Assembly (NCBI GenBank): GCA_964017155.1
Contig: OZ024857.1
Coordinates: 19,534,904 to 19,598,903, forward strand
Length of the DNA stretch: 64,000 nt
Direction of reading: 5' to 3'
DNA from: Oasisia sp. SBJ-2009
Lineage: Eukaryota; Annelida; Polychaeta; Sabellida; Siboglinidae
A program made the position numbers and the translations under genes. Below, in pieces: positions 7,710 through 64,000 of the stretch. Numbering within the stretch: position 1 is the stretch's first letter; the number at the start of each line of letters is the position of its first letter. The notes under the pieces were generated by a model. That model searched no databases. It saw only the letters and a program-made list of their open reading frames with translations, and had not been told where the DNA came from.

Positions 7710-14640
<6,931 letters not shown>

Positions 14641-22834: not shown

Positions 22835-25800
22835 CTACAACGGACACAAATGAATATATATCAACACTTAATTACAACAGAGTCACAGCTAACTTAGTCA
22901 ACTTTGATGGTGGGTAGCAGATTTAAGTAGGATACAGAATAAAAATTGGAATATGAAGAACGAGATTAGGAACTGAGTGCAACATATCAGGCTTTTTACC
23001 ATGTTTACCAGCAGGGTGTGTTGGCAGTGAAATTTGGAAGGGCATAGTGCGCAGAGTGATGTTTGGCAGATGTTTGGGTGCGGTTACATGGCTATTTTGG
23101 TACACGTCATAGCTTTATGCAGACACCCGTCCACCCGTCATTTCGAAGGGTAAAAAAGCGTTGTGGATGGGTAGAAATATGGGTGGACGGGTAAAAAATG
23201 AATGAGCCAAAAACCAAGGGATTAACCAAACTCGTAATCATAAAACAATGCGAGTCGTCAATGGATGGATGAAGAAGCTATTTTAAAGTTTATAAACTGG
23301 CTTAACAGTTAACACCCATGTATCCACCAAAACACGTGTGACTGGCAATAATTTGGTTCTGCATAAAGCCCTGGTACACGGGGTGAACACAATAACAGTT
23401 CAGCCACGAAGTGCACACGATGGTGTTCAATTGAACAGTTCAGGCAGGAAGTAAATATGATGATGTTCAAACGAACAGCTTAGTCAGGAAGTGTATACAA
23501 TGGTGTTCAATTGAACAGTTCAGCCAGGAAGTTAATATGATGGTGTTCAAATGAACAGCTTAGTCAGAAAGTGTACACGATGGTGTTCAATTGAACAGTT
23601 CAGCCAGGAAGTTAATATGATGGTGTTCAAATGAACAGCTTAGTCAAAAAGTGTACACGATGGTGTTCAATTGAACAGTTCAGCCAGGAAGTTAATATGA
23701 TGGTGTTCAAATGAACAGCTTAGTCAGGAAGTGTACACCATGGTGTTCAATTGAACAGTTCAGCCAGGAAGTTAATATGATGGTGTTCAAATGAACAGCT
23801 TAGTCAGAAAGTGTACACGATGGTGTTCAAATGAACAGTTCAGCCAGGAAGTTAATATGATGGTGTTCAAATGAACAGCTTAGTCAAGAAGTGTACACGA
23901 TGGTGTTCAATTGAACAGTTCAGCCAGGAAGTTAATATGATGGTGTTCAAATGAACAGCTTACTCAGGAAGTGTACACGATGGTGTTCAATTGAACATTT
24001 AAGCCAGGAAGTGTACACGATCGTGTTCGACTGAAGCTGTCGGTCAGGAAGTGTCCACTATCGCATTCAATTGGAAGAATTCTGCCATTGAGTGAAGTGT
24101 AAAGCGTGAAGTGCTTCAAGTCCTAACACCTAAGAACTGGATATTACGTTACATACACTTTACTTTATAAGTAGAAGAAATAAACATGCGAGACTATAAA
24201 GAGGAACGTACCTCTCTGAGTTCCGTCTCGGTGAAGACAAGAGGCAGAAGGAACTTCCTTATGGGCACTGTGAGGATGAGGGCGAAGGGGAACGCGAGAG
24301 ACGCGCTGGACGACTTGATCGCCCACATGGCTGTCAGTAGAATCACCTGCACTAGTGTGTACATGTGGATCTTGCGCGTCGGCACCTGTGAAACAACACA
24401 CAAGGCATGTGGCTTGAAAGAGACATGCTTCAACGTTCCTGTTGTCAACATCTGGAGGCAAGCACCTAAAGTTGCTGTTTGTACTCAAATTGTCAGGGTA
24501 AAAAATCACATCATATGCGGTTTTGTGAAACTATTCAGATGTACTAATAACGTAACACAAAGTGCATTTAAGGTATAACTGCCAATGCTAAATTTAAAAT
24601 GTGGTTAAAAGACAACACAAAAAAAGTTTAACATGTTAATAATAAATTATTCTGTTTTATCAGATTTTTTTATCAAAACTAATGCTACTTCGTACAGAAT
24701 AGTTCTACCCAACTGCAAGGAATTTGATAGATTTCTATCACATACATAAACAGTGCCAACACACAGTGCATAAGCAGTTGCTGTATATAGTTGTAAATGT
24801 TTTACAGCCTTCATCTTTGAGAAAGCTTCACTAAGATGACTATGTGATGTTCATGGACACGGATGTAAGTGGCGACTCACCTGTCGTATGTAGCTGACCA
24901 TGGGATGGTGCTTGGCCGGCACAAAGAACAGCTGCATGCGCTCGAACAACTGTATGCCGGCCGTCACTGACAGCCCCATGTAGAGGAAGATCCCAAACAA
25001 CACGGCCAGTGGGATGTTTCTCAACACCTGACCCAGCATGGCCGACACACCTACAACAATGTCATAACACATTTCTCAACACCTGACCCATCATGGCCGA
25101 CACACCTACAACAATGTCATAACACATTTCTCAACACCTGACCCATCATGGCCGACACACCTACAACAATGTCATAACACATTTCTCAACACCTGACCCA
25201 TCATGACAGACACACCTACACCAATGTCATAACACGTTTCTTAACACCTCACCCATCATGGCAGACACACCTACAACAATGTCATAACACGTTTCTCAAC
25301 ACCTGACCCATCATGGCAGACACACCTACAACAATGTCATAACACGTTTCTCAACACCTGACCCATCATGGCAGACACACCTATAACAATATCATAACAC
25401 CTTTCTCAACACCTGACCCATCATGGCCGACAAACCTACAACAATGTCATAACACGTTTCTCAACACCTGACCCATCATGGCCGACACACCTACAACAAT
25501 GTCATAACACGTTTCTCAACACCTGACCCATCATGGCAGACACACCTACACCAATGTCATAACACGTTTCTCAACACCTGACCTATCATGGCAGACACAC
25601 CTACAACAATGTCATAACACGTTTCTCAACACCTGACCCATTCATGGCCGACACACCTACAACAATGTCATAACACGTTTCTCAACACCTGACCCATCAT
25701 GGCAGACACACCTACACCAATGTCATAACACGTTTCTTAACACCTCACCCATCATGGCAGACACACCTACAACAATGTCATAACACGTTTCTCAACACCT

Positions 25801-28800
25801 GACCCATCATGGCAGACACACCTACAACAATGTCATAACATGTTTCTCAACACCTGACCCATCATGGCAGACACACCTATAACAATATCATAACACCTTT
25901 CTCAACACCTGACCCATCATGGCAGACACACCTATAACAATGTCATAACACCTTTCTCAACACCTGACCCATCATGGCAGACACACCTATAACAATATCA
26001 TAACACCTTTCTCAACACCTGACCCATCATGGCAGACACACCTACAACAATGTCATAACACATTTCTCAACACACAGCCAAATACCGCCGACACACACAA
26101 CAATGTCATAACACGTTTCTCAACACACGGCCAAATACAACCAACACACACCTACAACAATGCCATAACACATTATTTCTCAACACTCAGCCAAATACAG
26201 CCATACACACCTGCAACAATGTCATAACACGTTTCTCAACGCACAACCAAATATCGCCGACACACTCTTACAACAATGTCATAACACGTTTCTCAACACA
26301 CGGCCAAATAGAGAGGACACACACCTACAACAATATCATAACACATTTCTCAACACACGGCCAAATACAGAGGACACACACCTACAACAATGTCATAACA
26401 CATTTCTCAACACACGGCCAAATACAGAGGACACACACCTACAACAATGTCATAACACATTTCTCAACACACAGCCAAATACAGAGGACACACATCTACA
26501 CCAATGTCATAACACATTTCTCAACACTCGGCCAAATACATCCGACACACACCTACAACAATGTCATAACACATTTCTCAACACATGGCCAAATACAGAG
26601 GACACACACCTACCACAATGTCATAACACATTTCTCGACACACAGCCAAATACAGAGGACACACACCTAAAACAATGTCATAACACATTTCTCAACACAC
26701 AGCCAAATACAGAGGACACACATCTACACCAATGTCATAACACATTTCTCAACACACGGCCAAATACAGCCAACATACACCTACAAAAACAACATAACAC
26801 GTTTCTCAACACATTGCCAAATACGGGCCAACACAACAATGTCATAACACGTTTCTCAACAAACGACCAAATACAGCCAACATACCTACACCCACAAAAA
26901 TATCATAACATGTTTCTCAACACATTGCCAAATACAGCCAACATACACCTACAAAAATGTCACGACACATTTCTCAACACATTGCCAAATACAGCCAACA
27001 TACACCTACAAAAATGTCACGACACATTTCTCAACACATGGCAAAATTCAGCCGACACACCTGCAACAATGTCATAACACACCTACAATAATGTCATAAC
27101 ACACCTAAAACGTCATAACACATGGTTTTCCGCATTTTGAAATGGCTTCTAACATTTTACAACCGTTTCTTTAACGACCGATTTTCTAGAACTCAACACT
27201 TGAGCAAACTGTCCCCTGACTAGCGAGGTCACATGACCTGGTGTAGTCACTCACCTATCATGACGTGGACGGCAAGGCCAGTGACACGCTGTTCCCGCAC
27301 CATGCTCAGCACCGGCTTCATTCCTGGAGCCTGCTTGTGGGTGTAGACGGAGAGGGCGGACACGTGAGTGACCGACCGGACGGCCGCCCCAGTCACAAGG
27401 GGTAGACCAAACACCCCACCCACGCTGATGAGCACCCCTACCAGCATCAGGTCGAGGTGGTAGCCCGACCCCTTCTTCAGCTTCCGTTCTGTCTTGTTTA
27501 TGATCTTACTGCAAATGAAAATGGTTTATTCTAACACAGTGCAGTGTCTATGGGCCTGATCAGAACATTTCACAAATTAAATCAAATTTTACATGTACAT
27601 GAGCAATCAAAACAAAAAAGTATTGTTACGTGGTGGTCACATGGCACATAATGTGCCGTCTTCCTGTGACCCCAAAACATACACTTATAAAGTACAGATA
27701 CATATATACTTATACACATACAATCATGAAATCGCTGTTCTCAATATAATTTATTTGACAATATAATTTATTTGACAATGGACTGGAGGAATGTTTAAAA
27801 AGAAAATTTTATAATCTTGTAAATCCAAACAGTTTGCCTTTTTAAATAAACAATTTCACACATCGTTCTTCTCTGACAGACATCCGGGGTGGTTAAATAG
27901 TACCTGGACTTCTCTGGTAAGCTTCGTGCCATGTTATGATTATCACACAAAAACTGCTGTCACATATATCAGCAACTGTATTTCAGCTAAGTAATCATTG
28001 ATATATTAAAATGAATTATAGCAAACATTCACACTTCACATCAGATTCTTATGAAACCGTCTGAATGGTCTAGCCAAATCTTTGGACATAATGAATGAAG
28101 ATATTAGGCAATATGGTGGTATTAATAAATAATATAAAAGGTGCAATACTAAGGAAAAAATATTTGTTACGCTCTGCACTGCTGTTTTTATTTATCAGCT
28201 GAAATGTAGACAAACTTCCATCCTGAGGCGTTGAAGGTTTACCTACACAACACACTGGTCAACGTGTGGCAGGATGAACCAAGTCACAACTAAAAACTAA
28301 CCTGGTGATCTGCATCTCCATGAAGACAATGATGAACAGGAGGAGGGCGGGTATACTGGCCCCAAAGATGGCCCACATTGGCAGCCTCTCTTTCATACCC
28401 AGCGGATGGATTACCCAGCCTCGCTTTTCTGATGCTGTTGGCTTGAGACCATTTGGAACGTCCAGTTTCTGTGCAGACCACACACAGTGGGGTTATTGTA
28501 TTGTATTATATTGTTAGTAAACATGTAACACACTGTTTCAAACTACACAGTTGCCAAGTTCTCTCACACCAAATGCACAAGACTGTAGCTCTATATTAAT
28601 GTGTGTATAATTTACTTAATGTTTAAGAGGACATGTGCTTTGAAATTTTGTTAAGCTAGAGAACTAAAACTTGGTGGGAATTATCTCGTTGGGTTAAAAT
28701 ACACATAACAAGTGGAATTTATATTTTTGGACATGTGTACCCTGGAAATGGGAGACATTTATTTGTTTGAACCCTTTTTTATGCACAAATTCAAAAACAA

Positions 28801-31800
28801 TATGGATGGTGCTACAATAAATAACAGTATGTATTCAACTAAAAGTAGCACAATTATAGTTTGTCTGTATATATACTATCTGCTGTCTTTTAGCTTCTAA
28901 ACAAATATCAACAGACAACAAGACTGTCTTCTCCATTAGAGTGAACATAACGTTATAATCATATATGTAGGACACAAAGAATAAATTTCTTATTCCTACC
29001 TCTGTGTATGTTTCTGCGATAGAGTAATCCACAGCCACCATGATAGCAATAGCGATGGGAACACCAAAGTCACCCAATGCTCTCCTAATCTAAAAATACA
29101 GACAACAAATGCAATCAATACATGTATCCATGGCTATAAATTACAGTTACATCTCCCTGCAACTCACTGATGTTTTCCTTATAGTTAGGAACAGATCAAT
29201 GACTCACATTTGTGTACACTAATCCATATATTTAACTGATTTAGACACTGTTACACAGACAAAGCATACCGACATACACACATATATAATTTTAATCGTA
29301 ATGTTGGTAAACATCAACATACCCCCATCTTTCTTCATTTCATCATCAAATTTACAATTATTTCTTCAGCACAATTTCAGCAGTCTTCAGATTTTTAGTC
29401 AGACTAACCAACACTGCCAACAACTGAAAGCTGCACAAATATCACGGAAGAGACAAATGGCCTGAAAAATAACTACATTTTATATGCAAGTGATTGTTAG
29501 AAACACTGGTAGACACTTACACTGCGCCCCAAGAACTTGCTGTTTCTGAACTTCTTCAAGTACTCGGCAATGAAGTAGGTGCCGAGGGTGAGGATGAGAG
29601 TGAGCAGGGCGGTGTTGGGCTGGCTGTGAACCTCAACGTCATACGGCGTAGACGTGACGTTGTACGTCACATTAGACAAGCCGTTGCTGCTGATGTTTGG
29701 CAGTGGGTAGAAGGCATTCAGCGGATGCTTCAGGAACACCTGAAAGGCCGAGAGGTGTCATTCTGTGATGACATCACTGGTGTGGCAAGCAAATATAGGA
29801 AGAACGGTTGCACAAATAACCAGTTGTTCTCCTAAGATGTTTCACTGATGGTTTATGTGAGACTATCCTTCTGTGCAGCCAGTCAGTCCACTACCTGTTA
29901 CACATTTACCTTCTACCTGGCACATGTTACTTCCCCTGGCAATGACACCAGACAGACAGGAGCAACACCTCACACTGTCTCATCAAAAGAACAACAAGAG
30001 ACAGAGGCATGTGTGTATGACTAGTGAGTGGGCTCAATAAACACAAGAGGAACAAATACGACAGAAACAGCAAGAACTGCTGCATCTATTCTTCAAGCAT
30101 GGTGCACTAGATGGTGAACTGGTGCAATGGAGGGTGAACTGGTGCAATGGAGGGTGAACTGGTGCAATGGAGGGTGAACTGATACAATGGAGGGTGAATT
30201 GGTGCAATGGCGGGTGAACTGGTTCAATGGAGGGTGAACTAGTGCAATGGAGGGTGAATTGGTGCAATGGAGGTGGAACTGGTGCAATGGTGGGTGAACT
30301 GGTTCAATGGAGGGTGAACTGGTTCAATGGAGGGTGAACTGGTTCAATGGAGGGTGAATTGGTGCAATGGAGGGTGAATTGGTGCAATGGAGGGTGAATT
30401 GGTGCAATTGAGGGTGAACTGGTGCAATGGAGGGTGAACTGGTGCAATGGAGGGTGAACTGGTGCAATGGAGGGTGAACTGGTTCAATGGAGGGTGAATT
30501 GGTGCAATGGAGGGTGAACTGGTTCAATGGAGGGTGAACTGGTGCAATGGAGGATGAACTGGTTCAATGGAGGGTGAACTGGTTCAATGGAGGGTGAACT
30601 GGTTCTATGGAGGGTGAACTGGTTCAATGGAGGGTGAACTGGTGCAATGGAGGGTGAACTGGTTCAATGGAGGGTGAACTGGTTCAATGGAGGGTGAACT
30701 GGTTCAAGGGAGGGTGAACTGGTGCAATGGAGGGTGAACTGGTGCAATGGAGGTGGAACTGGTGCAATGGAGGATGAACTGGTGCAATGGAGGATGAACT
30801 TGTGCAATGGAGGTGGAACTGGTGCAATGGAGGATGAACTGGTGCAATGGAGGATGAACTGGTGCAATGGAGGATGAACTGGTGCAATGGAGGCTGAACT
30901 GGTGCAATGGAGGGTGAACTGGTGCAATGGAGGATGAACTGGTGCAATGGAGGATGAACTGGTGCAATGGAGGATGAACTGGTCCAATGGAGGATGAACT
31001 GGTGCAATGGAGGGTGAACTGGTGCAATGGAGGGTGAACTGGTGCAATGGAGGGTGAACTGGTGCAATGGAGGGTGAACTGGTGCAATGGAGGATGAACT
31101 GGTGCAATGGAGGATGAACTGGTCCAATGGAGGATGAACTGGTGCAATGGAGGGTGAACTGGTGCAATGGAGGGTGAACTGGTGCAATGGAGGGTAAACA
31201 AACTTACCCTGGATTCAAAACAGCACCAGGAATTTTCTAACTGGGAATCTCTCAAGAGAGAGTCTGACATTCTAACCGCTACACAAGACATAGTATGAAC
31301 AGCTGACAATTGTGGAGGATCCGTTACCTTGACGAGCTTGTAGAAGACCTCGTAGATGAAGATGAGAGCGATGAGGGCGGAGAAGATCTCCTCGGTGAAG
31401 CGGGTGAAGTACTGTACCAGGAAGCTGCCCTCGAACATGACCACGAACACGGTGAAGATGCCGACCCACAGGTTGATCCACAGTCGCATCGGCATGTACT
31501 CCAGCCCCACCTGGCCACAGATCTGACACAAGATATAGGAGGGTTAGTAAATCTAAATGTTTAGTTTTTCATATCCAAATTGAGATGTTTGTTTTTCACG
31601 TCGACTTCCTCAGTACTAATGACAAATGACAACGTCGTACATGGGTGGTAGCTCATACATGGGTGGTAGCTCATACATGGGTGGTAGCTCATACATGGGT
31701 GGTAGCTCGTACATGGGTGGTAGCTCGTACATGGGTGGTAGCTCGTACATGGGTGGTAGCTCGTACATGGGTGGTAGCTCGTACATGGGTGGTAGCTCGT

Positions 31801-34800
31801 ACATGGGTGGTAGCTCGTACATGGGTGGTAGCTCGTACATGGGTGGTAGCTCGTACATGGGTGGTAGCTCGTACATGGGTGGTAGCTCGTACATGGGTGG
31901 TAGCTCGTACATGGGTGGTAGCTCGTACATGGGTGGTAGCTCGTACATGGGTGGTAGCTCGTACATGGGTGGTAGCTCGTACATGGGTGGTAGCTCGTAC
32001 ATGGGTGGTAGCTCGTACATGGGTGGTAGCTCGTACATGGGTGGTAGCTCGTACATGGGTGGTAGCTCGTACATGGGTGGTAGCTCGTACATGGGTGGTA
32101 GCTCGTACATGGGTGGTAGCTCGTACATGGGTGGTAGCTCGTACATGGGTGGTAGCTCGTACATGGGTGGTAGCTCGTACATGGGTGGTAGCTCGTACAT
32201 GGGTGGTAGCTCGTACATGGGTGGTAGCTCGTACATGGGTGGTAGCTCGTACATGGGTGGTAGCTCGTACATGGGTGGTAGCTCGTACATGGGTGGTAGC
32301 TCGTACATGGGTGGTAGCTCGTACATGGGTGGTAGCTCGTACATGGGTGGTAGCTCGTACATGGGTGGTTGCTCGTACATGGGTGGTAGCTCGTACATGG
32401 GTGGTAGCTCATACATGGGTGGTAGCTCATACATGGGTGGTAGCTCATACATGGGTGGTAGCTCATACATGGGTGGTAGCTCATACATGGGTGGTAGCTC
32501 ATACATGGGTGGTAGCTCATACATGGGTGGTAGCTCATACATGGGTGGTAGCTCATACATGGGTGGTAGCTCATACATGGGTGGTAGCTCATACATGGGT
32601 GGTAGCTCATACATGGGTGGTAGCTCGTAATTGTCCTCATCTCTGTCCTTTGGTATGTTGGTCTTCCTAATGTGATGGCTTCCTTTATTTGTGGGTTCTT
32701 CTGTTTGGTTCTTTATTTAAAAAATTCACTCCCTGCCAGGCTTCTAGTCTATGATGTGGTTTCACTCGTTCATGGTCTGTTAGGGTGGATTTGTGATATT
32801 CGACATAAATTTGTTTCCACTCCTTGTGCATTTCTCAATGTTTGCGTTGTCTACGTCCTTTCTGAGCTCCACATGTACATCTGTACAATGACGTCATTCA
32901 TCATTAGTACTGAGGGAGTCAACATGTGACGTCCAATGAGACTCTAACGTAAAAGAAACATCTTGATTTGGATATGAAATATTTAAATTTGATTTGGAAA
33001 AGAACTATCCTGAAAAATGTTCAGTAACCTCATCTACAAGTGGGTCTGTCCCAGGCAGGAGGCTTGACCATTGTAACTAACTAGTAAATTCACTGATACC
33101 ACCACTAGCCATAGTTCAATAGCTACACAGGCATCCAGTCTCATGTCAAAGCAAATTTAAACGATACACTCTTGTAGTCTATCTACAGAACAGACACTAT
33201 TTGATTAGTTTCCTGTGTCTGTTGATCAACCCCAGATATCGCAGACCTTGACTCTCACAAACATCTACTATCCTTAACACTAAGCCAGCACACATATAAT
33301 GTGGCAGCACTGAAAATTTGGAACAACTTTCCCATAACCTTAAACAATCTGACAAGGTAGCCATATTCTGCAACATTTAGATTTGTTATTCCAAACTGCA
33401 TTTCCATCCTAAATGTTGGTTCCATTGGTGACTTTTATGGGTCCTTCAACACGATTTTCTTAGCGATTCTGACTGGCATTGCTCTTAAATAAGGATTTAA
33501 GGGTTCCGTGTATGTTGCATGAAATATTTGTAATATTTTCCAATCGTACACATGCTGCTAGCTGACTTACCACATAGAGGCTTTCTTCAAAGAGCAGCAG
33601 GGGCCCAGTGGCCCCCACAATGGTGAGGGGCTGGGCAGCCAGGAGGGAGAACATGACACCCCCCACAGACGTCATCACCAACATCTCACACACACCCAGC
33701 CACTTGTCTGTCTTGTCACCTGTCACAAAACACACACTGTCACCTGTCATACAATACACACTGTCACCTGTCACACAATACACACTGTCACCTGTCATAC
33801 AATACACACTGTCACCTGTCACACAATATACACTGCCACCTGTCACAAAACACACACTGTCACATGTCATACAATACACACTGTCACCTGTCACACAATA
33901 CACATTGCCACCTGTCACAAATCACACACTGTCACCTGTCACACAATATACACTGCCACCTTTCACACAATACACACTGTCACCTGTCACACAATACACA
34001 CTGTCACCTGTCACACAGTACACACTGTCACCTGTCACACAGTACACACTGTCACCTGTCACACAGTACACACTGTCACCTGTCATAAAACACACACCAT
34101 ATCATATTACTGTAATGATGTATTTAGACAGTGTGTTTTGGAAACCTGTTATTTTTGTGTCTGAACACAAGCAATACAAAGTGACTATATGTTTTCGGTT
34201 AACAAAAATAATTAATTTTCTGCACTATATGTTTTTGGAGAGATGAGAATTTTATTATGTTTATGTGCCTGAATAAATACGGTCACGGTTCAAATGTACT
34301 TCAAACTGTCCCAGGTTGCCATGATGTGGTACACGCAAAATACATGTAGTAACAAATGTTTATTTACAGAAACCATGATTATGCATTCACAGCTCAAAGA
34401 GCAGGCCTCCGAGTGTGACTGTGGGTGAGAGACAAGTGAAGTAGATGAAGAAGAAAGTGTACTCACTGAGCAGGCCTTTAAATGTGACAGTGGGTGAGAG
34501 ACAAGTGAAGTAGATGAAGAAGAAAGTGTACTCACTGAGCAGGCCTTTAAATGTGACAGTGGGTGAGAGACAAGTGAAGTAGATGAAGAAGAAAGTGTAC
34601 TCACTGAGCAGGCCTTTAAATGTGACAGTGGGTGAGAGACAAGTGAAGTAGATGAAGAAGAAAGTGTACTCACTGAGCAGGCCTCTAAATGTGACAGTGG
34701 GTGAGAGACAAGTGAAGTAGATGAAGAAGAAAGTGTACTCACTGAGCAGGCCTTTAAATGTGACAGTGGGTGAGAGACAAGTGAAGTAGATGAAGAAGAA

Positions 34801-37800
34801 AGTGTACTCACTGAGCAGGCCTTTAAATGTGACAGTGGGTGAGAGACAAGTGAAGTAGATGAAGAAGAAAGTGTACTCACTGAGCAGGCCTCTAAATGTG
34901 ACAGTGGGTGAGAGACAAGTGAAGTAGATGAAGAAGAAAGTGTACTCACTGAGCAGGCCTTTAAATGTGACAGTGGGTGAGAGACAAGTGAAGTAGATGA
35001 AGAAGAAAGTGTACTCACTGAGCAGGCCTCTAAATGTGACAGTGGGTGAGAGACAAGTGAAGTAGATGAAGAAGAAAGTGTACTCACTGAGCAGGCCTTT
35101 AAATGTGACAGTGGGTGAGAGACAAGTGAAGTAGATGAAGAAGAAAGTGTACTCACTGAGCAGGCCTCTAAATGTGACAGTGGGTGAGAGACAAGTGAAG
35201 TAGATGAAGAAGAAAGTGTACTCACTGAGCAGGCCTTTAAATGTGACAGTGGGTGAGAGACAAGTGAAGTAGATGAAGAAGAAAGTGTACTCACTGAGCA
35301 GGCCTCTAAATGTGACAGTGGGTGAGAGACAAGTGAAGTAGATGAAGAAGAAAGTGTACTCACTGAGCAGGCCTTTAAATGTGACAGTGGGTGAGAGACA
35401 AGTGAAGTAGATGAAGAAGAAAGTGTACTCACTGAGCAGGCCTCTAAATGTGACAGTGGGTGAGAGACAAGTGAAGTAGATGAAGAAGAAAGTGTACTCA
35501 CTGAGCAGGCCTTTAAATGTGACAGTGGGTGAGAGACAAGTGAAGTAGATGAAGAAGAAAGTGTACTCACTGAGCAGGCCTTTAAATGTGACAGTGGGTG
35601 AGAGACAAGTGAAGTAGATGAAGAAGAAAGTGTACTCACTGAGCAGGCCTCTAAATGTGACAGTGGGTGAGAGACAAGTGAAGTAGATGAAGAAGAAAGT
35701 GTACTCACTGAGCAGGCTTCTAAATGTGACAGTGGGTGAGAGACAAGTGAAGTAGATGAAGAAGAAAGTGTACTCACTGAGCAGGCTTCTAAATGTGACA
35801 GTGGGTGAGAGACAAGTGAAGTAGATGAAGAAGAAAGTGTACTCACTGAGCAGGCTTCTAAATGTGACAGTGGGTGAGAGACAAGTGAAGTAGATGAAGA
35901 AGAAAGTGTACTCACTGAGCAGGCCTTTAAATGTGACAGTGGGTGAGAGACAAGTGAAGTAGATGAAGAAGAAAGTGTACTCACTGAGCAGGCCTCTAAA
36001 TGTGACAGTGGGTGAGAGACAAGTGAAGTAGATGAAGAAGAAAGTGTACTCACTGAGCAGGCCTTTAAATGTGACAGTGGGTGAGAGACAAGTGAAGTAG
36101 ATGAAGAAGAAAGTGTACTCACTGAGCAGGCCTTTAAATGTGACAGTGGGTGAGAGACAAGTGAAGTAGATGAAGAAGAAAGTGTACTCACTGAGCAGGC
36201 TTCTAAATGTGACAGTGGGTGAGAGACAAGTGAAGTAGATGAAGAAGAAAGTGTACTCACTGAGCAGGCTTCTAAATGTGACAGTGGGTGAGAGACAAGT
36301 GAAGTAGATGAAGAAGAAAGTGTACTCACTGAGCAGGCTTCTAAATGTGACAGTGGGTGAGAGACAAGTGAAGTAGATGAAGAAGAAAGTGTACTCACTG
36401 AGCAGGCTTCTAAATGTGACAGTGGGTGAGAGACAAGTGAAGTAGATGAAGAAGAAAGTGTACTCACTGAGCAGGCTTCTAAATGTGACAGTGGGTGAGA
36501 GACAAGTGACGTAGATGAAGAAGAAAGTGTACTCACTGAGCAGGCTTCTAAATGTGACAGTGGGTGAGAGACAAGTGACGTAGATGAAGAAGAAAGTGTA
36601 CTCACTGAGCAGGCTTCTAAATGTGACAGTGGGTGAGAGACAAGTGACGTAGATGAAGAAGAAAGTGTACTCACTGAGCAGGCTTCTAAATGTGACAGTG
36701 GGTGAGAGACAAGTGACGTAGATGAAGAAGAAAGTGTACTCACTGAGCAGGCTTCTAAATGTGACAGTGGGTGAGAGACAAGTGACGTAGATGAAGAAGA
36801 AAGTGTACTCACTGAGCAGGCTTCTAAATGTGACAGTGGGTGAGAGACAAGTGACGTAGATGAAGAAGAAAGTGTACTCACTGAGCAGGCTTCTAAATGT
36901 GACAGTGGGTGAGAGACAAGTGAAGTAGATGAAGAAGAAAGTGTACTCACTGAGCAGGCCTCTAAATGTGACAGTGGGTGAGAGACAAGTGAAGTAGATG
37001 AAGAAGAAAGTGTACTCACTGAGCAGGCCTCTAAATGTGACAGTGGGTGAGAGACAAGTGAAGTAGATGAAGAAGAAAGTGTACTCACTGAGCAGGCCTC
37101 TAAATGTGACAGTGGGTGAGAGACAAGTGAAGTAGATGAAGAAGAAAGTGTACTCACTGAGCAGGCCTCTAAATGTGACAGTGGGTGAGAGACAAGTGAA
37201 GTAGATGAAGAAGAAAGTGTACTCACTGAGCAGGCCTCTAAATGTGACAGTGGGTGAGAGACAAGTGAAGTAGATGAAGAAGAAAGTGTACTCACTGAGC
37301 AGGCCTCTAAATGTGACAGTGGGTGAGAGACAAGTGAAGTAGATGAAGAAGAAAGTGTACTCACTGAGCAGGCCTTTAAATGTGACAGTGGGTGAGAGAC
37401 AAGTGAAGTAGATGAAGAAGAAAGTGTACTCACTGAGCAGGCTTCTAAATGTGACAGTGGGTGAGAGACAAGTGAAGTAGATGAAGAAGAAAGTGTACTC
37501 ACTGAGCAGGCCTTTAAATGTGACAGTGGGTGAGAGACAAGTGAAGTAGATGAAGAAGAAAGTGTACTCACTGAGCAGGCCTCTAAATGTGACAGTGGGT
37601 GAGAGACAAGTGAAGTAGATGAAGAAGAAAGTGTACTCACTGAGCAGGCCTCTAAATGTGACAGTGGGTGAGAGACAAGTGAAGTAGATGAAGAAGAAAG
37701 TGTACTCACTGAGCAGGCTTCTAAATGTGACAGTGGGTGAGAGACAAGTGAAGTAGATGAAGAAGAAAGTGTACTCACTGAGCAGGCTTCTAAATGTGAC

Positions 37801-40800
37801 AGTGGGTGAGAGACAAGTGAAGTAGATGAAGAAGAAAGTGTACTCACTGAGCAGGCCTTTAAATGTGACAGTGGGTGAGAGACAAGTGAAGTAGATGAAG
37901 AAGAAAGTGTACTCACTGAGCAGGCCTCTAAATGTGACAGTGGGTGAGAGACAAGTGAAGTAGATGAAGAAGAAAGTGTACTCACTGAGCAGGCCTTTAA
38001 ATGTGACAGTGGGTGAGAGACAAGTGAAGTAGATGAAGAAGAAAGTGTACTCACTGAGCAGGCTTCTAAATGTGACAGTGGGTGAGAGACAAGTGAAGTA
38101 GATGAAGAAGAAAGTGTACTCACTGAGCAGGCCTTTAAATGTGACAGTGGGTGAGAGACAAGTGAAGTAGATGAAGAAGAAAGTGTACTCACTGAGCAGG
38201 CCTCTAAATGTGACAGTGGGTGAGAGACAAGTGAAGTAGATGAAGAAGAAAGTGTACTCACTGAGCAGGCCTCTAAATGTGACAGTGGGTGAGAGACAAG
38301 TGAAGTAGATGAAGAAGAAAGTGTACTCACTGAGCAGGCTTCTAAATGTGACAGTGGGTGAGAGACAAGTGAAGTAGATGAAGAAGAAAGTGTACTCACT
38401 GAGCAGGCTTCTAAATGTGACAGTGGGTGAGAGACAAGTGAAGTAGATGAAGAAGAAAGTGTACTCACTGAGCAGGCCTTTAAATGTGACAGTGGGTGAG
38501 AGACAAGTGAAGTAGATGAAGAAGAAAGTGTACTCACTGAGCAGGCCTCTAAATGTGACAGTGGGTGAGAGACAAGTGAAGTAGATGAAGAAGAAAGTGT
38601 ACTCACTGAGCAGGCCTTTAAATGTGACAGTGGGTGAGAGACAAGTGAAGTAGATGAAGAAGAAAGTGTACTCACTGAGCAGGCTTCTAAATGTGACAGT
38701 GGGTGAGAGACAAGTGAAGTAGATGAAGAAGAAAGTGTACTCACTGAGCAGGCCTTTAAATGTGACAGTGGGTGAGAGACAAGTGAAGTAGATGAAGAAG
38801 AAAGTGTACTCACTGAGCAGGCCTCTAAATGTGACAGTGGGTGAGAGACAAGTGAAGTAGATGAAGAAGAAAGTGTACTCACTGAGCAGGCCTCTAAATG
38901 TGACAGTGGGTGAGAGACAAGTGAAGTAGATGAAGAAGAAAGTGTACTCACTGAGCAGGCTTCTAAATGTGACAGTGGGTGAGAGACAAGTGAAGTAGAT
39001 GAAGAAGAAAGTGTACTCACTGAGCAGGCTTCTAAATGTGACAGTGGGTGAGAGACAAGTGAAGTAGATGAAGAAGAAAGTGTACTCACTGAGCAGGCCT
39101 TTAAATGTGACAGTGGGTGAGAGACAAGTGAAGTAGATGAAGAAGAAAGTGTACTCACTGAGCAGGCCTCTAAATGTGACAGTGGGTGAGAGACAAGTGA
39201 AGTAGATGAAGAAGAAAGTGTACTCACTGAGCAGGCCTTTAAATGTGACAGTGGGTGAGAGACAAGTGAAGTAGATGAAGAAGAAAGTGTACTCACTGAG
39301 CAGGCTTCTAAATGTGACAGTGGGTGAGAGACAAGTGAAGTAGATGAAGAAGAAAGTGTACTCACTGAGCAGGCCTTTAAATGTGACAGTGGGTGAGAGA
39401 CAAGTGAAGTAGATGAAGAAGAAAGTGTACTCACTGAGCAGGCCTCTAAATGTGACAGTGGGTGAGAGACAAGTGAAGTAGATGAAGAAGAAAGTGTACT
39501 CACTGAGCAGGCCTCTAAATGTGACAGTGGGTGAGAGACAAGTGAAGTAGATGAAGAAGAAAGTGTACTCACTGAGCAGGCTTCTAAATGTGACAGTGGG
39601 TGAGAGACAAGTGAAGTAGATGAAGAAGAAAGTGTACTCACTGAGCAGGCTTCTAAATGTGACAGTGGGTGAGAGACAAGTGAAGTAGATGAAGAAGAAA
39701 GTGTACTCACTGAGCAGGCCTTTAAATGTGACAGTGGGTGAGAGACAAGTGAAGTAGATGAAGAAGAAAGTGTACTCACTGAGCAGGCCTCTAAATGTGA
39801 CAGTGGGTGAGAGACAAGTGAAGTAGATGAAGAAGAAAGTGTACTCACTGAGCAGGCCTCTAAATGTGAGAGTGGGTGAGAGACAAGTGAAGTAGATGAA
39901 GAAGAAAGTGTACTCACTGAGCAGGCTTCTAAATGTGACAGTGGGTGAGAGACAAGTGAAGTAGATGAAGAAGAAAGTGTACTCACTGAGCAGGCTTCTA
40001 AATGTGACAGTGGGTGAGAGACAAGTGAAGTAGATGAAGAAGAAAGTGTACTCACTGAGCAGGCCTTTAAATGTGACAGTGGGTGAGAGACAAGTGAAGT
40101 AGATGAAGAAGAAAGTGTACTCACTGAGCAGGCCTCTAAATGTGACAGTGGGTGAGAGACAAGTGAAGTAGATGAAGAAGAAAGTGTACTCACTGAGCAG
40201 GCTTCTAAATGTGACAGTGGGTGAGAGACAAGTGAAGTAGATGAAGAAGAAAGTGTACTCACTGAGCAGGCTTCTAAATGTGACAGTGGGTGAGAGACAA
40301 GTGAAGTAGATGAAGAAGAAAGTGTACTCACTGAGCAGGCCTCTAAATGTGACAGTGGGTGAGAGACAAGTGAAGTAGATGAAGAAGAAAGTGTACTCAC
40401 TGAGCAGGCCTTTAAATGTGACAGTGGGTGAGAGACAAGTGAAGTAGATGAAGAAGAAAGTGTACTCACTGAGCAGGCCTTTAAATGTGACAGTGGGTGA
40501 GAGACAAGTGAAGTAGATGAAGAAGAAAGTATACTCACTGAGCAGGCCTCCGAATGTGACGGCAGGCGAGAGGCAAGCGAAGTAGATGAAGAAGAAAGTA
40601 GCGAAGCAGTGGAAGTTGAGGCCGTCCTTGATGTCACTCAGGTACTGTGGGTAGCGTCGCTTCACGTCTTTCACCATGCCCCCAAACAGCCGGCCGGTCC
40701 GTGCCAGGGGCTCCAAGTCAGTTAGTGATGGACTTCCATGCAGAGTCGCTGTGGCAACAAACACATGTACTCATGTAAACTGTACTGGTTTATCCTCATC

Positions 40801-43800
40801 TTACCATAGCTGGTGCGTAGTAATAACAGCGGTGGTTGCGCGGTAGAGTGCCGGACTGTCTATCGAGGGGACGATAGTTCAATCTCACCTACCGCCGTTT
40901 CGAAACTTAGGCAATTTCGTTTACCTCACATTTCCTATGTCTTTCGGAAGAGACACTAAAAGCCGGTGGTCCTTTCTATCTGGTGTCTATGCCAGGGGAA
41001 GTAAAAGATCCCACACCGGGGGTAAATTTTTAACCTGTAGTGGACTCACTAATTCTAGAGAAGGACAACTCTAAAAACCAAGCTCGACAATACTCTAGTC
41101 ACAAACATGTGGCTAACATAGAGTGATGAGCTAACTATAAGAAGAAGAAGAATATGTGTATGTCCTGTTATAAGCTCTCTCACATGAAGTGAAGGTATGA
41201 TATATTTCTTTAATAATTTTCCTGTGGAGAAATATCTTACGGCCACCGTAAAATATATGTACTATTGTGTAGGCAACTTGAGTATTTTCTTGATAATGTT
41301 TTTATTATATGGCGTTGTTCTCCACATCTTCAGAGCTAACATCATTGCAAAGAATGACTACTGAGTCGCCACCTAGTGACAGACAAAGAGATCACTTCAC
41401 GAGAAAATTCGTAAAAACACAAACATTGTTATTGCATGATTAAACTGAAGCGATAACATGCCAGTGACCCCTTCAATTGACCTCTGACCTGACCCACTCA
41501 CCAAGGGATAACCTTCGGGTTTTCTTCCTTCGCAGTGTCTCTTTTGCCATGAGCAGGATCGGCAGCAGCGTTTTCTTATCCCACTCACAAGGTGGCAGCA
41601 CGATAGCGTTATCGAGGAACCGGTTTATTGCGTCGAGCAAATCTTGTCGGTCCTCTGCTTTGTATGAATCGTCGAGAAAATACTGGAAGAAATCAGTGAG
41701 CGGGTGTAAGATTAATGAGTAAGAGTCATTGTGGATAAACAAGTATAGAACCGGTCCACTCTGGTGGGCCGGTGCGAGAAAAAAAAACAGTGGACAAAAC
41801 CCCAACGGACAAAACCCCAGCAGACAAAACCCCAGCGGACAAAACCCCAGCGGACAAAACCCCAACGGACAAAACCCCAACGGACAAAACCCCAACGGAC
41901 AAAACCCCAGCGGACAAAACCCCAACGGACAAAACCCCAACGGACAAAACCCCAGCGGACAAAACCCCAACGGACAAAACCCCAGCGGACGAAACCCCAA
42001 CGGACGAAACCCCAACGGACGAAACCCCAGCGGACGAAACCCCAACGGACGAAACCCCAACGGACGAAACCCCAGCGGACGAAACCCCAGCGGACAAAAC
42101 CCCAACGGACAAAACCCCAACGGACAAAACCCCAGCGGACGAAACCCCAACGGACGAAACCCCAACGGACGAAACCCCAGCGGACGAAACCCCAACGGAC
42201 AAAACCCCAGCGGACAAAACCCCAGCGGACAAAACCCCAACGGACAAAACCCCAACGGACAAAACCCCAGCGGACGAAACCCCAACGGACGAAACCCCAA
42301 CGGACGAAACCCCAGCGGACGAAACCCCAACGGACAAAACCCCAGCGGACAAAACCCCAGCGGACAAAACCCCAACGGACAAAACCCCAACGGACAAAAC
42401 CCCAGCGGACAAAACACCAGCGGACAAAACACCAGCGGACAAAACCCCAGCGGACAAAACCCCAACGGACAAAACCCCAACGGACAAAACACCAATGGAC
42501 GAAACCCCAACGGACAAAACCCCAGCAGACAAAACCCCAACGGACAAAACCCCAACGGATAAAACCCCAACGGACAAAACCCCAGCGAACAAAACACCAG
42601 CGGACAAAACACCAGCAGACAAAACCCCAGCAGACAAAACCCCAACGGACAAAACCCCAACGGACAAAACACCAGTGGACAAAACTCTAGCGAGCAAATT
42701 CCCAGCGGACAAAACCCCAATGGACAAAACCCCAACTGGACAAAACCCCAACGGACAAAATCCCAACTGAAAAAACCCTAGCGGACAAATTCCCAGCGGA
42801 CAAAACCCCAATGGACAAAACCCCAACTGGACAAAACCACAACGGACAAAATCCCAAAGGACAAAATCCCAACGGACAAAACCCCAATGGAAAAAATCCC
42901 AACCGGACAAAATCCCAACGGACAAAACCCCAACGGACAAAATCCCAACCGGACAAAATCCCAACGGACAAAATACAAAACGGACAAAACCCCAACAGAC
43001 AAAATACAAAACGGACAAAACCCCAACCACTGATTTCAGATGTGGGTGTCCAGACTTTCTTGCTGTATACATGCATGCATGTTTCGGATTTTGTCCATTG
43101 GGGTTTTGTCCTGCACTCGGTGGACCACACATATGCAGGTGTACTCACGGGGTTGGACATGAGGGTGGAGATGGAGCGGCCGACCTCGTGACAGTCGACG
43201 GTGGTGTTGGTGGGCCCCATCACCAGGAAGAGGAAGCGCACGGGAAGGGGAACCTCCAGGATCTCGGAGAGACACTGCCCCTCGCACAGCCGCACGAATG
43301 CCATCACCGGCTTGCTCAGGAAGTCAACGTTGCCGGCCAGCACCATGCAAGCCTCTGCATTCGGGGGGATTTTGCGCAGGATCGCTGCTTCCGGTCGCGA
43401 CTGGTGGCCAGGCAGCACACCAGGTGGCAGCACGTATAGTTTGTTTTTCTCCTACAACAAAACGTTCATCGTTCTGAAACCAGCGGGAAAATGTTTTGTG
43501 TGGATTTTCTATTTGAGTTGAGATGGGTTTTTTATGATGAATTTAACAGTAGAGGTACAATTTAATTTTGGCTAATTTACTATATATGCCAGGGAACATG
43601 TATGGTGAATTCAAAATATATATAGAAATGTTCTGGAAATGAACTTGTACCTGCTTAAATTCCCAATTTACTAAATAAAAATGCTTAGCTAAACATTATG
43701 GTAAGGGACACTAACCTATATTTAGGTTTTCACAATATAATGGGCCAATACTGACATACCTGATTTAAAAGCATTAAAGATTCAACATCGTTATTTTCTA

Positions 43801-46233: not shown

Positions 46234-49200
46234 ATGCGCTTTTTTGTGTGTAAGTGCATGTGTGTATGCATTAGTGCTCGTTTGATACCAGATTTTTTCA
46301 ATACCTATCGATACCAAATTGTTCCGATACTCGATACTTACATTGTAAGTCTAATATTCATATAGAGTACAGTTCCCAGTAGAAGCACATTATGCAACAG
46401 AGCCACACACATTTTTTTCTTAGGTTCAGAATTAGTGGCATTATTCTTCAAAAATAAAAAAATTGTTTTCAAATTCAAATGAATGGCACAGTTTAGTGAT
46501 TTCCACAAGTTTTCCTAAACGTACCGACATTATTCCAACAGCCAACAGGTTCCACAATACTATCCGGGGTTTCCAGGGCCAGTTTTTGCCGTGAAACCTA
46601 TAAAAATGGAGTGCCATGGAGTGCCATGGAGTGCCATGGCGTGCCATGGAGTGCCAGTGGCACTGATGTTGGGACATCACAGATATCAAATAGATTGACA
46701 AATATTGACAGTATCGAATGGATCGATGGTATTGATGGTATTGAAAGATTGACGACAACTAAAGAGATCGATGACACTGAAGTTTGATATATGTCGAATA
46801 TTGTGATACCACAAAGTAGCAGTATTGAACTTGCAAAATCAAAACTATTTATGGAGTTTTACAATATATATATATATAAAGCACGGTCCAAAACGTAATT
46901 GTTAAATAAAAATAGACACAAAAATACATGTACTACTAATATTAAAGCATGCACAGTACTATTAAAAAAATTATTTTCTAATAAACACATCAGAATAGTA
47001 CCGAATAGATAAATTATGAAATAAATAGGAAATTGATAAATTTATAAAACAAAATATTCAAACGGAGGTGATAACGAGGGCATAAGAGATGGAAGGTCGC
47101 ACCCTGCTCAATACACCTGCGCAACTCAAGGAGACTGTGGAAGGAGAGGGAGGCGACGTGGGGCTTGCCCCACCGCTCCGCACCCTCATCCAAGTCCTCC
47201 TCAAACTTGATCCAGCGAGCCTTCTCCCGCCACTCCCAGCCAATCGTGTCGTCCCACACCAGCTCGTCCAGCTCCACGAACATCTGCAGCCACAACACAG
47301 ACAGTAGTCACGTGTGCCACGAACATCTGCAGCCGCAACACACACAGTAGTCACGAACATCTGCCACCGTAACACAAACAGTAGTCACGTGTGCCACGAA
47401 CATCTGCAGCCGCAACACACACAGTAGTCACGAACATCTGCAGCTGCAACACAAACAGTAGTCACATGTGCCACGAACATCTGCAGCCGCAACACACACA
47501 GTAGTCACGTGTGCCACGTACATCTGCAGCGGCAACACAAACAGTAGTCACGTGTGCCACGAACATCTGCAGCCGCAACACACACAGTAGTCACGTGTGC
47601 CACGAACATCTGCAGCCGCAACACAAACAGTAGTCACGTGTGCCACAAACATCTGCAGCGGCAACACAAACAGTAGTCACGTGTGCCACGAACATCTGCA
47701 GCCGCAACACAAACAGTAGTCACGTGTGCCACGAACATCTGCAGCCGCAACACAAACAGTAGTCACGTGTGCCACGAACATCTGCAGCCGCAACACAAAC
47801 AGTAGTCACGTGTGCCACGAACATCTGCAGCCGCAACACAAACAGTAGTCACGTGTGCCACGAACATCTGCAGCCGCAACACAAACAGTAGTCACGTGTG
47901 CCACGAACATCTGCAGCCGCAACACAAACAGTAGTCACGTGTGCCACGAACATCTGCAGCCGCAACACACACAGTAGTCACGTGTGCCACGAACATCTGT
48001 AGCCGCAACACAAACAGTAGTCACGTGTGCCACGAACATCTGCAGCCGCAACACAAACAGTAGTCACGTGTGCCACGAACATCTGCAGCCGCAACACAAA
48101 CAGTAGTCACGTGTGCCACGAACATCTGCAGCCGCAACACACACAGTAGTCACGTGTGCCACGTACATCTGCAGCGGCAACACAAACAGTAGTCACGTGT
48201 GCCACGAACATCTGCAGCCGCAACACACACAGTAGTCACGTGTGCCACGAACATCTGCAGCCGCAACACAAACAGTAGTCACGTGTGCCACGAACATCTG
48301 CAGCCGCAACACAAACAGTAGTCACGTGTGCCACAAACATCTGCAGCGGCAACACAAACAGTAGTCACGTGTGCCACGAACATCTGCAGCCGCAACACAC
48401 ACAGTAGTCACGTGTGCCACGAACATCTGCAGCCGCAACACAAACAGTAGTCACGTGTGCCACGAACATCTGCAGCCGCAACACACACAGTAGTCACGTG
48501 TGCCACGAACATCTGCAGCCGCAACACACACAGTAGTCACGTGTGCCACGAACATCTGCAGCCGCAACACAAACAGTAGTCACGTGTGCCACGAACATCT
48601 GCAGCGGCAACACAAACAGAAGTCACGTGTGCCACAAACATCTGCAGCGGCAACACAAACAGTAGTCACGTGTGCCACGAACATCTGCAGCCGCAACACA
48701 AACAGTAGTCACGTGTGCCACGAACATCTGCAGCCGCAACACAAACAGTAGTCACGTGTGCCACGAACAGCTGCAGCGGCAACACAAACAGTAGTCACGA
48801 ACATCTGCAGCCGCAACACAAACAGTAGTCACGAACATCTGCAGCCGCAACACAAACAGTAGTCACGAACATCTGCAGCCGCAACACAAACAGTAGTCAC
48901 GAACATCTGCAGCCGCAACACAAACAGTAGTCACGAACATCTGCAGCCGCAACACAAACAGTAGTCACGAACATCTGCAGCCGCAACACAAACAGTAGAA
49001 CATCTGCAGCCGCAACACAAACAGTAGTCACGAACATCTGCAGCCGCAACACAAACAGTAGTCACGAACATCTGCAGCCGCAACACAAACAGTAGTCACG
49101 AACATCTGCAGCCGCAACACAAACAGTAGTCACGAACATCTGCAGCCGCAACACAAACAGTAGTCAAGTACACTGCTTTGCAGAAGTTACGGTTTTATCT

Positions 49201-60809: not shown

Positions 60810-63001
60810 CAGTATATGTGCAGATGCGAACTGAGACAACTTTACTCCATATGTTATCCTAACCATAACCTCACATTGATGAATTTATTAACAATCACAC
60901 TTTGGGATGGGTTCAATTACAAATTACACAATTACCTTATTTGAAACAGGCAATTTATATCAATGAAATTTACTCACCACTACATTTGGAACAACTGTCA
61001 GTGAAATAAGAATACACTGAACTAAACAGACTATGTACAAAGTGTCTGAGTAACTATTACAATCAGCAGCATGATTACAGTCATAACCGAATATAACTAA
61101 CCCACACACTGCTACATCTCTGAAGCCACAGAATATCACCTTTTTGTGACAGACAATAATGCTCTTGCTTTCGTGGCGAGCCAAAAATAGTTCAGAAGAA
61201 GATCACAATCCAATCAAGATAAACAAGGAAGTCTTTAAAATGACACACTGAGTATTGTCAGAAAAATATTTTTGGGTGTGCATCAGTAAAATAAATGGCT
61301 GCATTATCGACCTTATAAATATCTAATGAACACACTGCTCTGTGTTTCTGCATATGTTAATGGTGGATGTGATCTGCTGCTTAGAGACGTGACAGAGCAG
61401 TAACTGGAGGCGAGTGTGGTTAAGCTGCCCACTAAGACCTCTATGACTACACCGCCAGTTAGCCTACATCACGTACTCGCCTTCTGCCTCAATCACACCT
61501 GCTAATCTCCTACAAAGCAAGAACATCATTGGACTTTCTCAATCACAGCTGTCACTGGCAGTCTTGGGTGGAAGTGCCACACCATTAGTGCTCATAGGAA
61601 CTACACAATGGACCGAAACAAACAGAGCATGTTGTGTTATAAAGATGACCCCCGTATGTAATGTTTTTTAGGAATATAGTACATTACCATGTTTCTTTTA
61701 ATATGGATTTGCTTCTATTGTAAAATATATATTTTCTTGCATACTTTAAATGATACACTTATAACCTGATAGACAAATTATATGGTGCTAAGAAGGATTT
61801 TGACAAAAAACATAAGATTTTGTTTGATATTCGTGTATTTTACAGCCTGGTATATGGAGAAAATTGATCAGATTATGATTGTTACAATAATTAACTATGA
61901 TAATGATGACAATGTGGACTTTTAAGGAATTTAAAGTAAAAATTATGGAATTAAACCAGGAAAAGGTGTAATAGAAACAGACCTTTACAATACTGACGGA
62001 AGTCAATCAAACATGGCATGCCAAGCATAATTAGACATGAAAATGTACAGGTCAAATTGAAACAATAGAAAGGAAGCAATGATACACACAAGCATGCATC
62101 TCGACTGCTTGTTGAGGCGCAGCTACAAAGCTTCACAACTGGCACAATCATATGAAAAATAGGCTGATTATTAATTAAAACATAACAATGTCAAAAACAA
62201 ATAAAATTTATATTTTAAATATATGAGACTGCTAGACATACAGCGAGTGACTGAGTGTCGGAGAATCAATGAGTTAATAACAATAAAAAATATACAAAAT
62301 TATACCTTTTGTCCACTTGACTTCTTAGACTTAGATTTTCCATGACTTCTGTTGTCTTTGGTTGACCTTGAGTGTGCGAGCTTCCTTCGTGGACTGATTG
62401 GGTGATAGGCGTGGGCGTATTCATCGCTTCTGTGGTGGCCTGTATAACATAGTACCTGGCAATATTAATTAGAGACACTTTGTACCAGATTTTACCACAT
62501 TTAGCCCTAAATTGCTACAGTGTCTGGTTTTACAATTGCGCTAACCAATTTCACCCCTTTCCGTTGCCACACTGACAGGTTTCATTATTTGAGTATGCAT
62601 TGCTGCAATGTACACCCTGCAGCTGCATCTGAACCAAGTACACCCTCAGTCACCCTGTGTAAATAAGTTTACTTGAATGTCATACCAATAACAATCTCAG
62701 TGAAAAACATACAAGAAATAGCAACAATGTTATAATACTGGAAGCTAGAACATTATTTACACAATGTAAATATTTTTATAACAACCATGTTTATTACAAT
62801 GTTTCCTTTTAAACTTATTACTCATTCTTCATTCACCTAGACCTCAATCAGACCAGTCTAGTCTAGACACTCTTTTTTTACCATTGTTATTTACTCAGGC
62901 AAACTCAGCCCATTCACTCTGTCACTCACCCACTCACTGTCACTCACTCACTCATTCACCCACTCACTCACCATATTTCTCTCATTCATTCACTCAGTCC
63001 G

Positions 63002-63047
<46 letters not shown>

Positions 63048-63688: not shown

Positions 63689-64000
63689 CTGGCAACAAAC
63701 AGCTCCGATAACAATCACATAGGTTCAGTTAAAATAGTCTGGGAACAAACAGTTCTGATCAAGGTCACATAAGTTCCGTTAATTAATATACTTTCACTCC
63801 ATCATTTTCTTTTCGACAAATTTCACCTCATTCACAAAATGCCATCTACCCAGTAGGAAGATTCAGTCTAGTGTAAATACAGTTTACAAAGAAGCCTAGC
63901 TGTGTTTTTGTGTGATAAATTCTGAATTTTTAAAGGTGACGATAATGTTCTTATTTGATAATAAAAGGTCAAAAAAAATGTAATGTTACCAAACCATTTA
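63689..64000. other. Upstream of exon 1, no exon recognised
   Basis: AACAAACAG-TTC-GAT repeats twice (63692 and 63744). I see no promoter element or further coding exon. Confidence 0.4.

What the first reader, a model, noticed from the sequence alone, without database searches (positions are those of the whole stretch)
34389..40538. A 69-bp array of ~89 copies of an exon end with its own splice donor, keeping the reading frame open
On the minus strand each unit is the donor GTGAGTACAC followed by 59 nt matching the last 59 nt of exon 12 (TM1 of the anion exchanger). Because 69 is divisible by 3, the frame stays open for about 6.1 kb. Splicing from any unit's donor to exon 13 would also preserve the frame and add n x 23 residues, each a copy of a membrane segment. 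This could be a store of alternative donors, giving a variable number of extra TM1-like segments, or a large decoy that the spliceosome must ignore. Only the exon-proximal donor gives a normal AE protein.
Basis: partly seen in the sequence, partly recalled or inferred. Interest (0 to 1): 0.92.

Follow-up and report, generated by a model that had tools for sequence, protein, structure and literature searches.

The report
Splice-junction tandem repeats in transporter gene
An animal bicarbonate-transporter gene carries 88 spare copies of one exon's end, each with an intact-looking splice signal, and three more of its splice junctions have also grown into tandem arrays; this looks like a giant case of the 'mirage' repeats known from lancelets rather than a store of alternative protein parts.

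Summary
The array is real. On the minus strand, exon 12 of an AE2/AE3-like SLC4 gene (40748-40539) is followed by 88 near-identical 69-bp copies of its last ~60 nt plus the first intron bases, then a decayed 90th unit; 89 of 90 units keep CAGTGAGT. The open frame is real, but follows from 69 being divisible by 3 and from homogenisation. All 88 core units replace a conserved glycine (FGG) by Arg or Lys, and 4 of 5 variable columns are non-synonymous, which argues against a coding reserve. Four of 10 arrays of period 10 or more in the mapped gene span a junction (0.66 expected, P = 0.002). This matches 'mirage' minisatellites described in amphioxus, where RT-PCR results suggest regular splicing. 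The organism could not be named, and no RNA data were at hand. Best reading: junction-seeded minisatellites, ignored because exon-proximal sites are used. It would be an extreme natural test of splice-site choice: 89 donors and 14 acceptors in one intron.

The parts
40539..40748 (-). Exon 12 of the SLC4 AE-like gene, ending ...FGGLL S (phase 1), source of the array
   Evidence: Gene model with open spliced CDS; AE3/AE2 alignment
40533..40538 (-). Authentic 5' splice site GTGAGT (context TCA|GTGAGTAT)
   Evidence: U1 duplex -7.6 kcal/mol
34460..40531 (-). 88 core 69-bp units (2-89), each with TCA|GTGAGTA; 5 variable columns; 9-unit higher-order repeat in units 16-48
34391..34459 (-). Terminal unit 90: diverged, keeps exon-like CGGAGG, donor destroyed
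34387..34389 (-). In-frame TGA that closes the 2070-codon frame; AATAAA follows at 34364
   Evidence: chance of an AATAAA in 60 nt about 0.05
33714..34097 (-). 24-bp x 16 array of the acceptor of exon 13 (GTGACAG|GTGACA): 14 intact ACAG|GTG junctions including the authentic one
33571..33719 (-). Exon 13
25016..27080 (-). 55-bp x 37 array of the acceptor and first 35 nt of exon 19 (GTTGTAG|GTGTGTCGGCC)
24881..25050 (-). Exon 19
47274..49166 (-). 43-bp (and 34-bp) array of the acceptor and first 9 nt of the MFVEL exon (GGCTGCAG|ATGTTCGTG)
47103..47283 (-). MFVEL exon (cytoplasmic domain)

Best explanation
It is a junction-seeded minisatellite of the kind called a 'mirage' in amphioxus. A short tandem duplication arose across the exon 12 / intron 12 border. 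The extra copies were harmless because, with the exon-proximal donor in use, they lie in the intron. Unequal exchange or slippage then expanded and homogenised the middle of the array to 88 copies, while the exon copy (kept by selection on the protein) and the far-end copy escaped homogenisation. The same happened at three acceptors of the gene. The copies are spliced out because the authentic site lies next to a well-defined exon (exon-centric proximity), not because the decoys are weaker. Shown: sequence, gene model, array anatomy, nearly equal donor strength, sister arrays. Inferred: order of events, exon-proximal splicing.
For: The unit spans the border. Exon-like edges and a homogenised core with a 9-unit higher-order repeat, the pattern reported for globin mirages. 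Three sister junction arrays: in a 24-mer scan of 28 borders, 4 have 14-88 matches at 19/24 or better in the adjoining intron and 24 have none. 4 of 10 arrays of period 10 or more in the mapped gene span a junction, 0.66 expected, P 0.002; without the 69-bp array 3 of 9, 0.50 expected, P 0.010. Core copies lack all 4 CpGs of the exon copy and 5 of 8 differences lie at those CpGs, as in non-coding decay. Gly to Arg/Lys in 88 of 88 core units. Two database proteins from other records, P0001 and P0002, show one extra copy of the exon 13 acceptor ([32 protein letters not shown]), so duplication there is not confined to this assembly.
Against: The decoy donors are almost as strong as the true one: PWM 5.62 against 5.65, U1 duplex -7.1 against -7.6 kcal/mol, so sequence alone does not explain how they are ignored. 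The species was not identified, so membership in the amphioxus class is by anatomy only. The enrichment test was made after the 69-bp array had drawn attention to the window, in one gene. The exon 12 array itself was not found in any other record. P0003, 83% identical, shows no extra acceptor copy.
Confidence: 0.85

Rival explanations
1. Store of alternative donors: array donors are used in some tissue, giving AE isoforms with n x 23 extra residues.
For: 89 donors with the same -3 to +7 sequence; the unit is a multiple of 3 and the frame is open. The 24-bp acceptor array also keeps the frame: of 14 acceptors, the 8 from 33911 down to the authentic 33719 give no stop.
Against: Arg/Lys at the conserved Gly in 88 of 88 core units; 4 of 5 variable columns non-synonymous; the 6 acceptor copies upstream of 33911 lead to an in-frame stop; sister arrays of 55 and 43 bp break frame; each insert would place another hydrophobic segment after TM1 (inference from the SLC4 fold, recalled); amphioxus mirages reported not to disturb splicing.
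Confidence: 0.06
2. Alternative last exon: read-through of the whole array to the TGA at 34389 and the AATAAA at 34364 gives a truncated AE with a 2070-residue tail, or the 89 U1 sites serve to suppress that intronic poly(A) site (telescripting).
For: Stop and AATAAA lie within about 35 nt after the array; U1 bound in introns suppresses premature polyadenylation (abstract and passages of PMC3826338).
Against: An AATAAA within 60 nt is expected with probability about 0.05 by chance; no RNA data; unit 90 and its flank look like relic intron.
Confidence: 0.04
3. Assembly artefact: the array is inflated by mis-joined long reads.
For: A 6.2 kb, 98% identical array is a classic trouble spot; the globin paper notes a mirage that appears aberrantly assembled in the genome draft.
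Against: No indel in 90 units, structured blocks of variants and a 9-unit higher-order repeat, three sister arrays with other units, and an extra acceptor copy in two other records. The exact copy number remains untested.
Confidence: 0.04
4. Units act as mini-introns with internal acceptors, so the array is removed stepwise.
For: 59 of 88 core units have TTTAG behind a pyrimidine-rich stretch, 58 nt after the previous donor. The AG that overlaps each donor (CTCAG|TGAG) scores 0.28 to 1.57, above 2 to 3 of the gene's 15 own acceptors.
Against: The TTTAG site scores -2.06, below all 15 acceptors of the gene (leave-one-out -1.44 to 12.7); the 11-nt remainder would break the frame unless used in threes; using CTCAG would destroy the donor of the same unit. 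The matrix rests on 15 sites only.
Confidence: 0.02

Closest known systems
Amphioxus 'mirage' minisatellites (Adh3, TnC, globin BflGb6 and BflGb9, PGBD5)
   Same: Tandem repeats across an exon-intron border, at 5' and 3' borders, with splice signals in many copies; homogenised core, divergent edges; several genes affected (PMC3087553, abstract and passages; PMC3902484, passages).
   Different: Here 89 intact donor copies in 6.2 kb, against 3-6 units in BflGb6 and 2-7 in PGBD5 as stated in those passages; four junctions of one gene, both ends of one intron.
Variable internal tandem repeats at exon-intron boundaries of primate duplicated genes
   Same: Minisatellites at borders that can change intron structure (PMC2812944, passages).
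   Different: Those average 30-bp units x 4 and modify mRNAs; here no RNA evidence and far more copies.
Intron gain from tandem arrays or AG/GT duplications (Zhuo 2007, Gao and Lynch 2009, Rogers 1989)
   Same: Duplicated splice signals in tandem.
   Different: Here existing introns grow; no new intron is shown. These papers were not read; known from the text and reference list shown.

Membership tests
Amphioxus-type mirage minisatellite | Tandem repeat unit spans an exon-intron border and contains the splice signal | tested here: met
   Four arrays, at the E12 donor and at the MFVEL, E13 and E19 acceptors
Amphioxus-type mirage minisatellite | Occurs at both 5' and 3' borders | tested here: met
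   One donor array and three acceptor arrays
Amphioxus-type mirage minisatellite | Concerted evolution in the core, edges excluded | tested here: met
   Units 2-89 vary at 5 columns; unit 1 and unit 90 differ from a typical core unit at 9 and 8 columns
Amphioxus-type mirage minisatellite | Unit length within the reported range (10-160 bp) | tested here: met
   24, 43, 55, 69 bp; range
Amphioxus-type mirage minisatellite | Does not disturb regular splicing | not testable with these tools
   No RNA data
Amphioxus-type mirage minisatellite | Length instability between alleles or within individuals | not testable with these tools
   One haplotype in hand; the genome search did not complete
Amphioxus-type mirage minisatellite | Cephalochordate host | tested here: inconclusive
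   No call names the organism; the gene is an AE-type SLC4 gene
Alternative 5' splice-site cassette | More than one donor used in mRNA | not testable with these tools
   No RNA data
Alternative 5' splice-site cassette | Extra coding segments under protein-level constraint | tested here: not met
   Gly to Arg/Lys in 88 of 88 core units; 4 of 5 variable columns non-synonymous

The most novel reading that the evidence does not exclude
Splice junctions are preferred seeds of minisatellite birth in this lineage, through a junction-linked mutational process or through selection that tolerates duplications which leave one working site. An intron with 89 nearly equal donors and 14 acceptors that is still spliced correctly would show that exon-centric proximity can override 1,245 competing GT-AG pairs.
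Probability: 0.25. Interest if true: 0.75.

Novelty: new member of a known kind. Interest (0 to 1): 0.48.

Why it matters
A review (PMC10228655, one passage) contrasts two proximity rules with an imagined intron that has two adjacent sets of splice sites: the intron-centric rule picks the innermost pair, the exon-centric rule the exon-proximal pair. Intron 12 here is that intron in nature, with 89 matched donors and 14 acceptors (1,246 pairs), and the two rules predict very different products. It also gives a four-junction case for asking why minisatellites start at splice borders.

Tried and rejected
Chance: rejected; 88 homogenised copies with 0% indels. Selected open frame: rejected as a needed cause; 69 is divisible by 3, the exon part is already open and only the intron bases had to lack a stop. 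Donor strength as the discriminator: rejected; donors nearly equal. RNA folding hiding the decoys: no support; a 3-unit stretch folds no better than shuffles, z 0.38, and predicted accessibility of the donor 11-mer is near zero for the authentic and the 10 array donors tested alike. Mini-intron units: see the rival. Acceptor strength: 0 of 27 other pattern matches reach the authentic score at exon 13 and 0 of 37 at MFVEL, but 18 of 19 do at exon 19, so strength is not a general answer. The exon 13 pattern was loose: its 28 matches include AGs that are not copies of the acceptor. The exon 19 pattern matched 20 sites, fewer than the 37 copies TRF gives, because diverged copies fall outside it.

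Search for the array elsewhere: the 2070-aa frame gave no hit at E 0.001 among the 7990 best candidates scored; exon 12 plus units gave 31 hits, of which I read 9 sequences, and those 9 carried no copies of the 69-bp unit; 0 exact matches in viral contigs and genome contigs, which are not animal collections. P0050 and P0031 show degenerate repeats beside the homologous exon of other animals by eye, but a self-BLAST did not report them.

Controls that helped little: of 722 intronic 30-mers, 279 have a second copy of 24/30 or better in their intron, nearly all in the introns that hold arrays, so they say nothing about borders. In the 30-mer scan of the same call only 3 of the 4 junction arrays pass 24/30; the exon 13 acceptor reaches 22/30 because its unit is 24 bp, and it passes in the 24-mer scan.

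Mended on checking: my first array count (8 arrays, 0.57 expected, P 0.001; 3 of 7 without the 69, P 0.005) had left out two short arrays (27742-27779 and 29901-29941). One search recounts with all TRF rows of period 10 or more in the mapped gene, overlapping rows merged: 4 of 10, 0.66 expected, P 0.002; 3 of 9 without the 69, 0.50 expected, P 0.010; with the largest period per array P 0.004 and 0.017. The test leaves out arrays beyond the mapped exons (40/80-bp at 23394-24073, 12-bp at 62922-63429, 50-bp at 63688-63782) and periods under 10.
Full report
WHAT IS THERE. The gene on the minus strand is an anion exchanger of the SLC4 family. I mapped 15 exons between 50188 and 24212; spliced together they give one open frame of 875 residues with both Pfam domains of the family; the best solved relatives are AE3 and AE2 (on a preliminary exon set). 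All 15 donors begin with GT and all 15 acceptors end in AG.

THE ARRAY. From 40599 to 34399 there are 89.9 copies of a 69-bp unit, 98% alike, without indels. Unit 1 is the exon end itself. Units 2-89 vary at only 5 columns: three unit types in nearly equal numbers (30, 29, 29), a run of six units sharing one further change, and a nine-unit pattern repeated in units 16-24, 25-33 and 34-42 with a partial fourth copy (period-9 agreement 44 of 79, the highest fraction of the 24 shifts tried). Unit 90 is a relic: it keeps the exon-like CGGAGG, which the core has lost, but its donor is destroyed. CAGTGAGT is present in 89 of 90 units. The join between copies shares TAC, so the unit is 62 + 7 or 59 + 10 nt of exon and intron. 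This is how an expanded and homogenised minisatellite with protected edges looks.

WHY THE OPEN FRAME IS NOT SELECTION. The frame runs 2070 codons to a TGA. Given a unit divisible by 3 and an exon part already open, only the few intron bases had to lack a stop, and homogenisation spread that unit. The core units encode Arg or Lys at the first glycine of FGG in 88 of 88 units; that glycine is present in AE2 and AE3 and in 13 of 13 SLC4 fragments covering it that I read. Four of the five variable columns in the core are non-synonymous in the exon frame. The exon copy has 4 CpGs, the core none, and 5 of the 8 exon-to-core differences at the 61 compared positions lie at those CpGs. A point on the other side: of those 8 differences 3 change an amino acid and 5 are silent, which fits constraint on the exon as well as on the array; the numbers are too small to separate the two.

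THE SISTER ARRAYS. The 24-bp array at 33714-34097 is the acceptor of exon 13 with its first exon bases; 14 ACAG|GTG junctions are intact including the authentic one. Thus both ends of intron 12 are arrays: 89 donors and 14 acceptors. All 14 acceptors are in the same phase; the 6 farthest from exon 13 lead to an in-frame stop and the other 8 do not. The 55-bp array at 25016-27080 is the acceptor plus 35 nt of exon 19, with units near the exon almost identical to it and distant units decayed. The 43-bp array at 47274-49166 is the acceptor plus 9 nt of the MFVEL exon. In a scan of all 28 borders of the 14 mapped introns with 24-mers, the E12 donor and the E13, E19 and MFVEL acceptors have 88, 14, 34 and 46 matches of 19/24 or better in the adjoining intron, and the other 24 borders have none (these are match positions, not a strict count of units). 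With seeds placed at random, 0.66 of the 10 arrays of period 10 or more would span a border; 4 do (P 0.002). Leaving out the array that drew attention, 3 of 9 do, against 0.50 (P 0.010) (which replaces a first count that had missed two short arrays). This is one gene, looked at after the fact.

HOW IT WORKS. Donor strength does not tell the true site from the copies: in a weight matrix from the gene's other donors the authentic site scores 5.65 and the copies 5.62, and their U1 duplexes are -7.6 and -7.1 kcal/mol (U1 sequence recalled). Folding gives no answer either. The simplest rule that yields a normal protein is position: the site nearest the exon. A review describes this as the exon-centric proximity rule, opposed to an intron-centric rule that would take the innermost pair (PMC10228655, one passage). 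[quoted passage not shown] That the same holds here is inference.

WHAT IT IS CALLED. Tandem repeats across intron-exon borders in amphioxus are termed mirages, with units of 10-72 bp in Adh3 and about 150-160 bp in globins, at 5' and 3' borders, with homogenised cores and excluded edges (PMC3087553, abstract and passages). The four structural features that I could test are met; normal splicing, instability and host were not testable or stayed open. I could not name the organism of the window: no call gives it, and the genome search did not complete. If it is a lancelet, this has more copies than any mirage in the passages I read; if not, the class reaches beyond lancelets. The listings show no title or abstract on this SLC4 array, and a search joining SLC4, anion exchanger, amphioxus, tandem repeats, minisatellite and splice donor (4 of 6 required) found 0 papers. 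Most subscription papers are not held; the original Adh3 paper was not read (one search was a guess at its id).

OTHER ASSEMBLIES. Two proteins from other records, P0001 (98% identical over 64% of the query) and P0002 (100% over 64%), run from one extra copy of the exon 13 acceptor into exon 13, so duplication at that acceptor exists outside this assembly. P0003 (83% over 63%) shows no such copy. For the 69-bp array no such support was found.

Noticed in passing
63688-63782: A 50-bp x 1.9 duplication ends at the acceptor of a putative upstream coding exon ([10 protein letters not shown]...), a possible fifth junction case; the best copy matches the acceptor 30-mer at only 17 of 30, so it was not counted.
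   Followed up: partly
34359-34364: AATAAA about 20 nt after the stop that closes the array frame; chance about 0.05.
   Followed up: partly
9561-11044: A TACA microsatellite of 371 copies at 100% match.
   Followed up: no
41792-43027: A 15-bp x 82 intronic array with a short inverted copy of its unit in the 5' flank, near the donor of the preceding exon.
   Followed up: no
P0050 and P0031: In other animals the homologous SLC4 exon is read together with degenerate repeats lying directly beside its border; seen by eye, not confirmed by self-BLAST.
   Followed up: partly
49566-49637: A tRNA-like sequence without a clear anticodon on the plus strand, close to a frame that looks like a LINE reverse transcriptase by recall; perhaps SINE-derived.
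   Followed up: no
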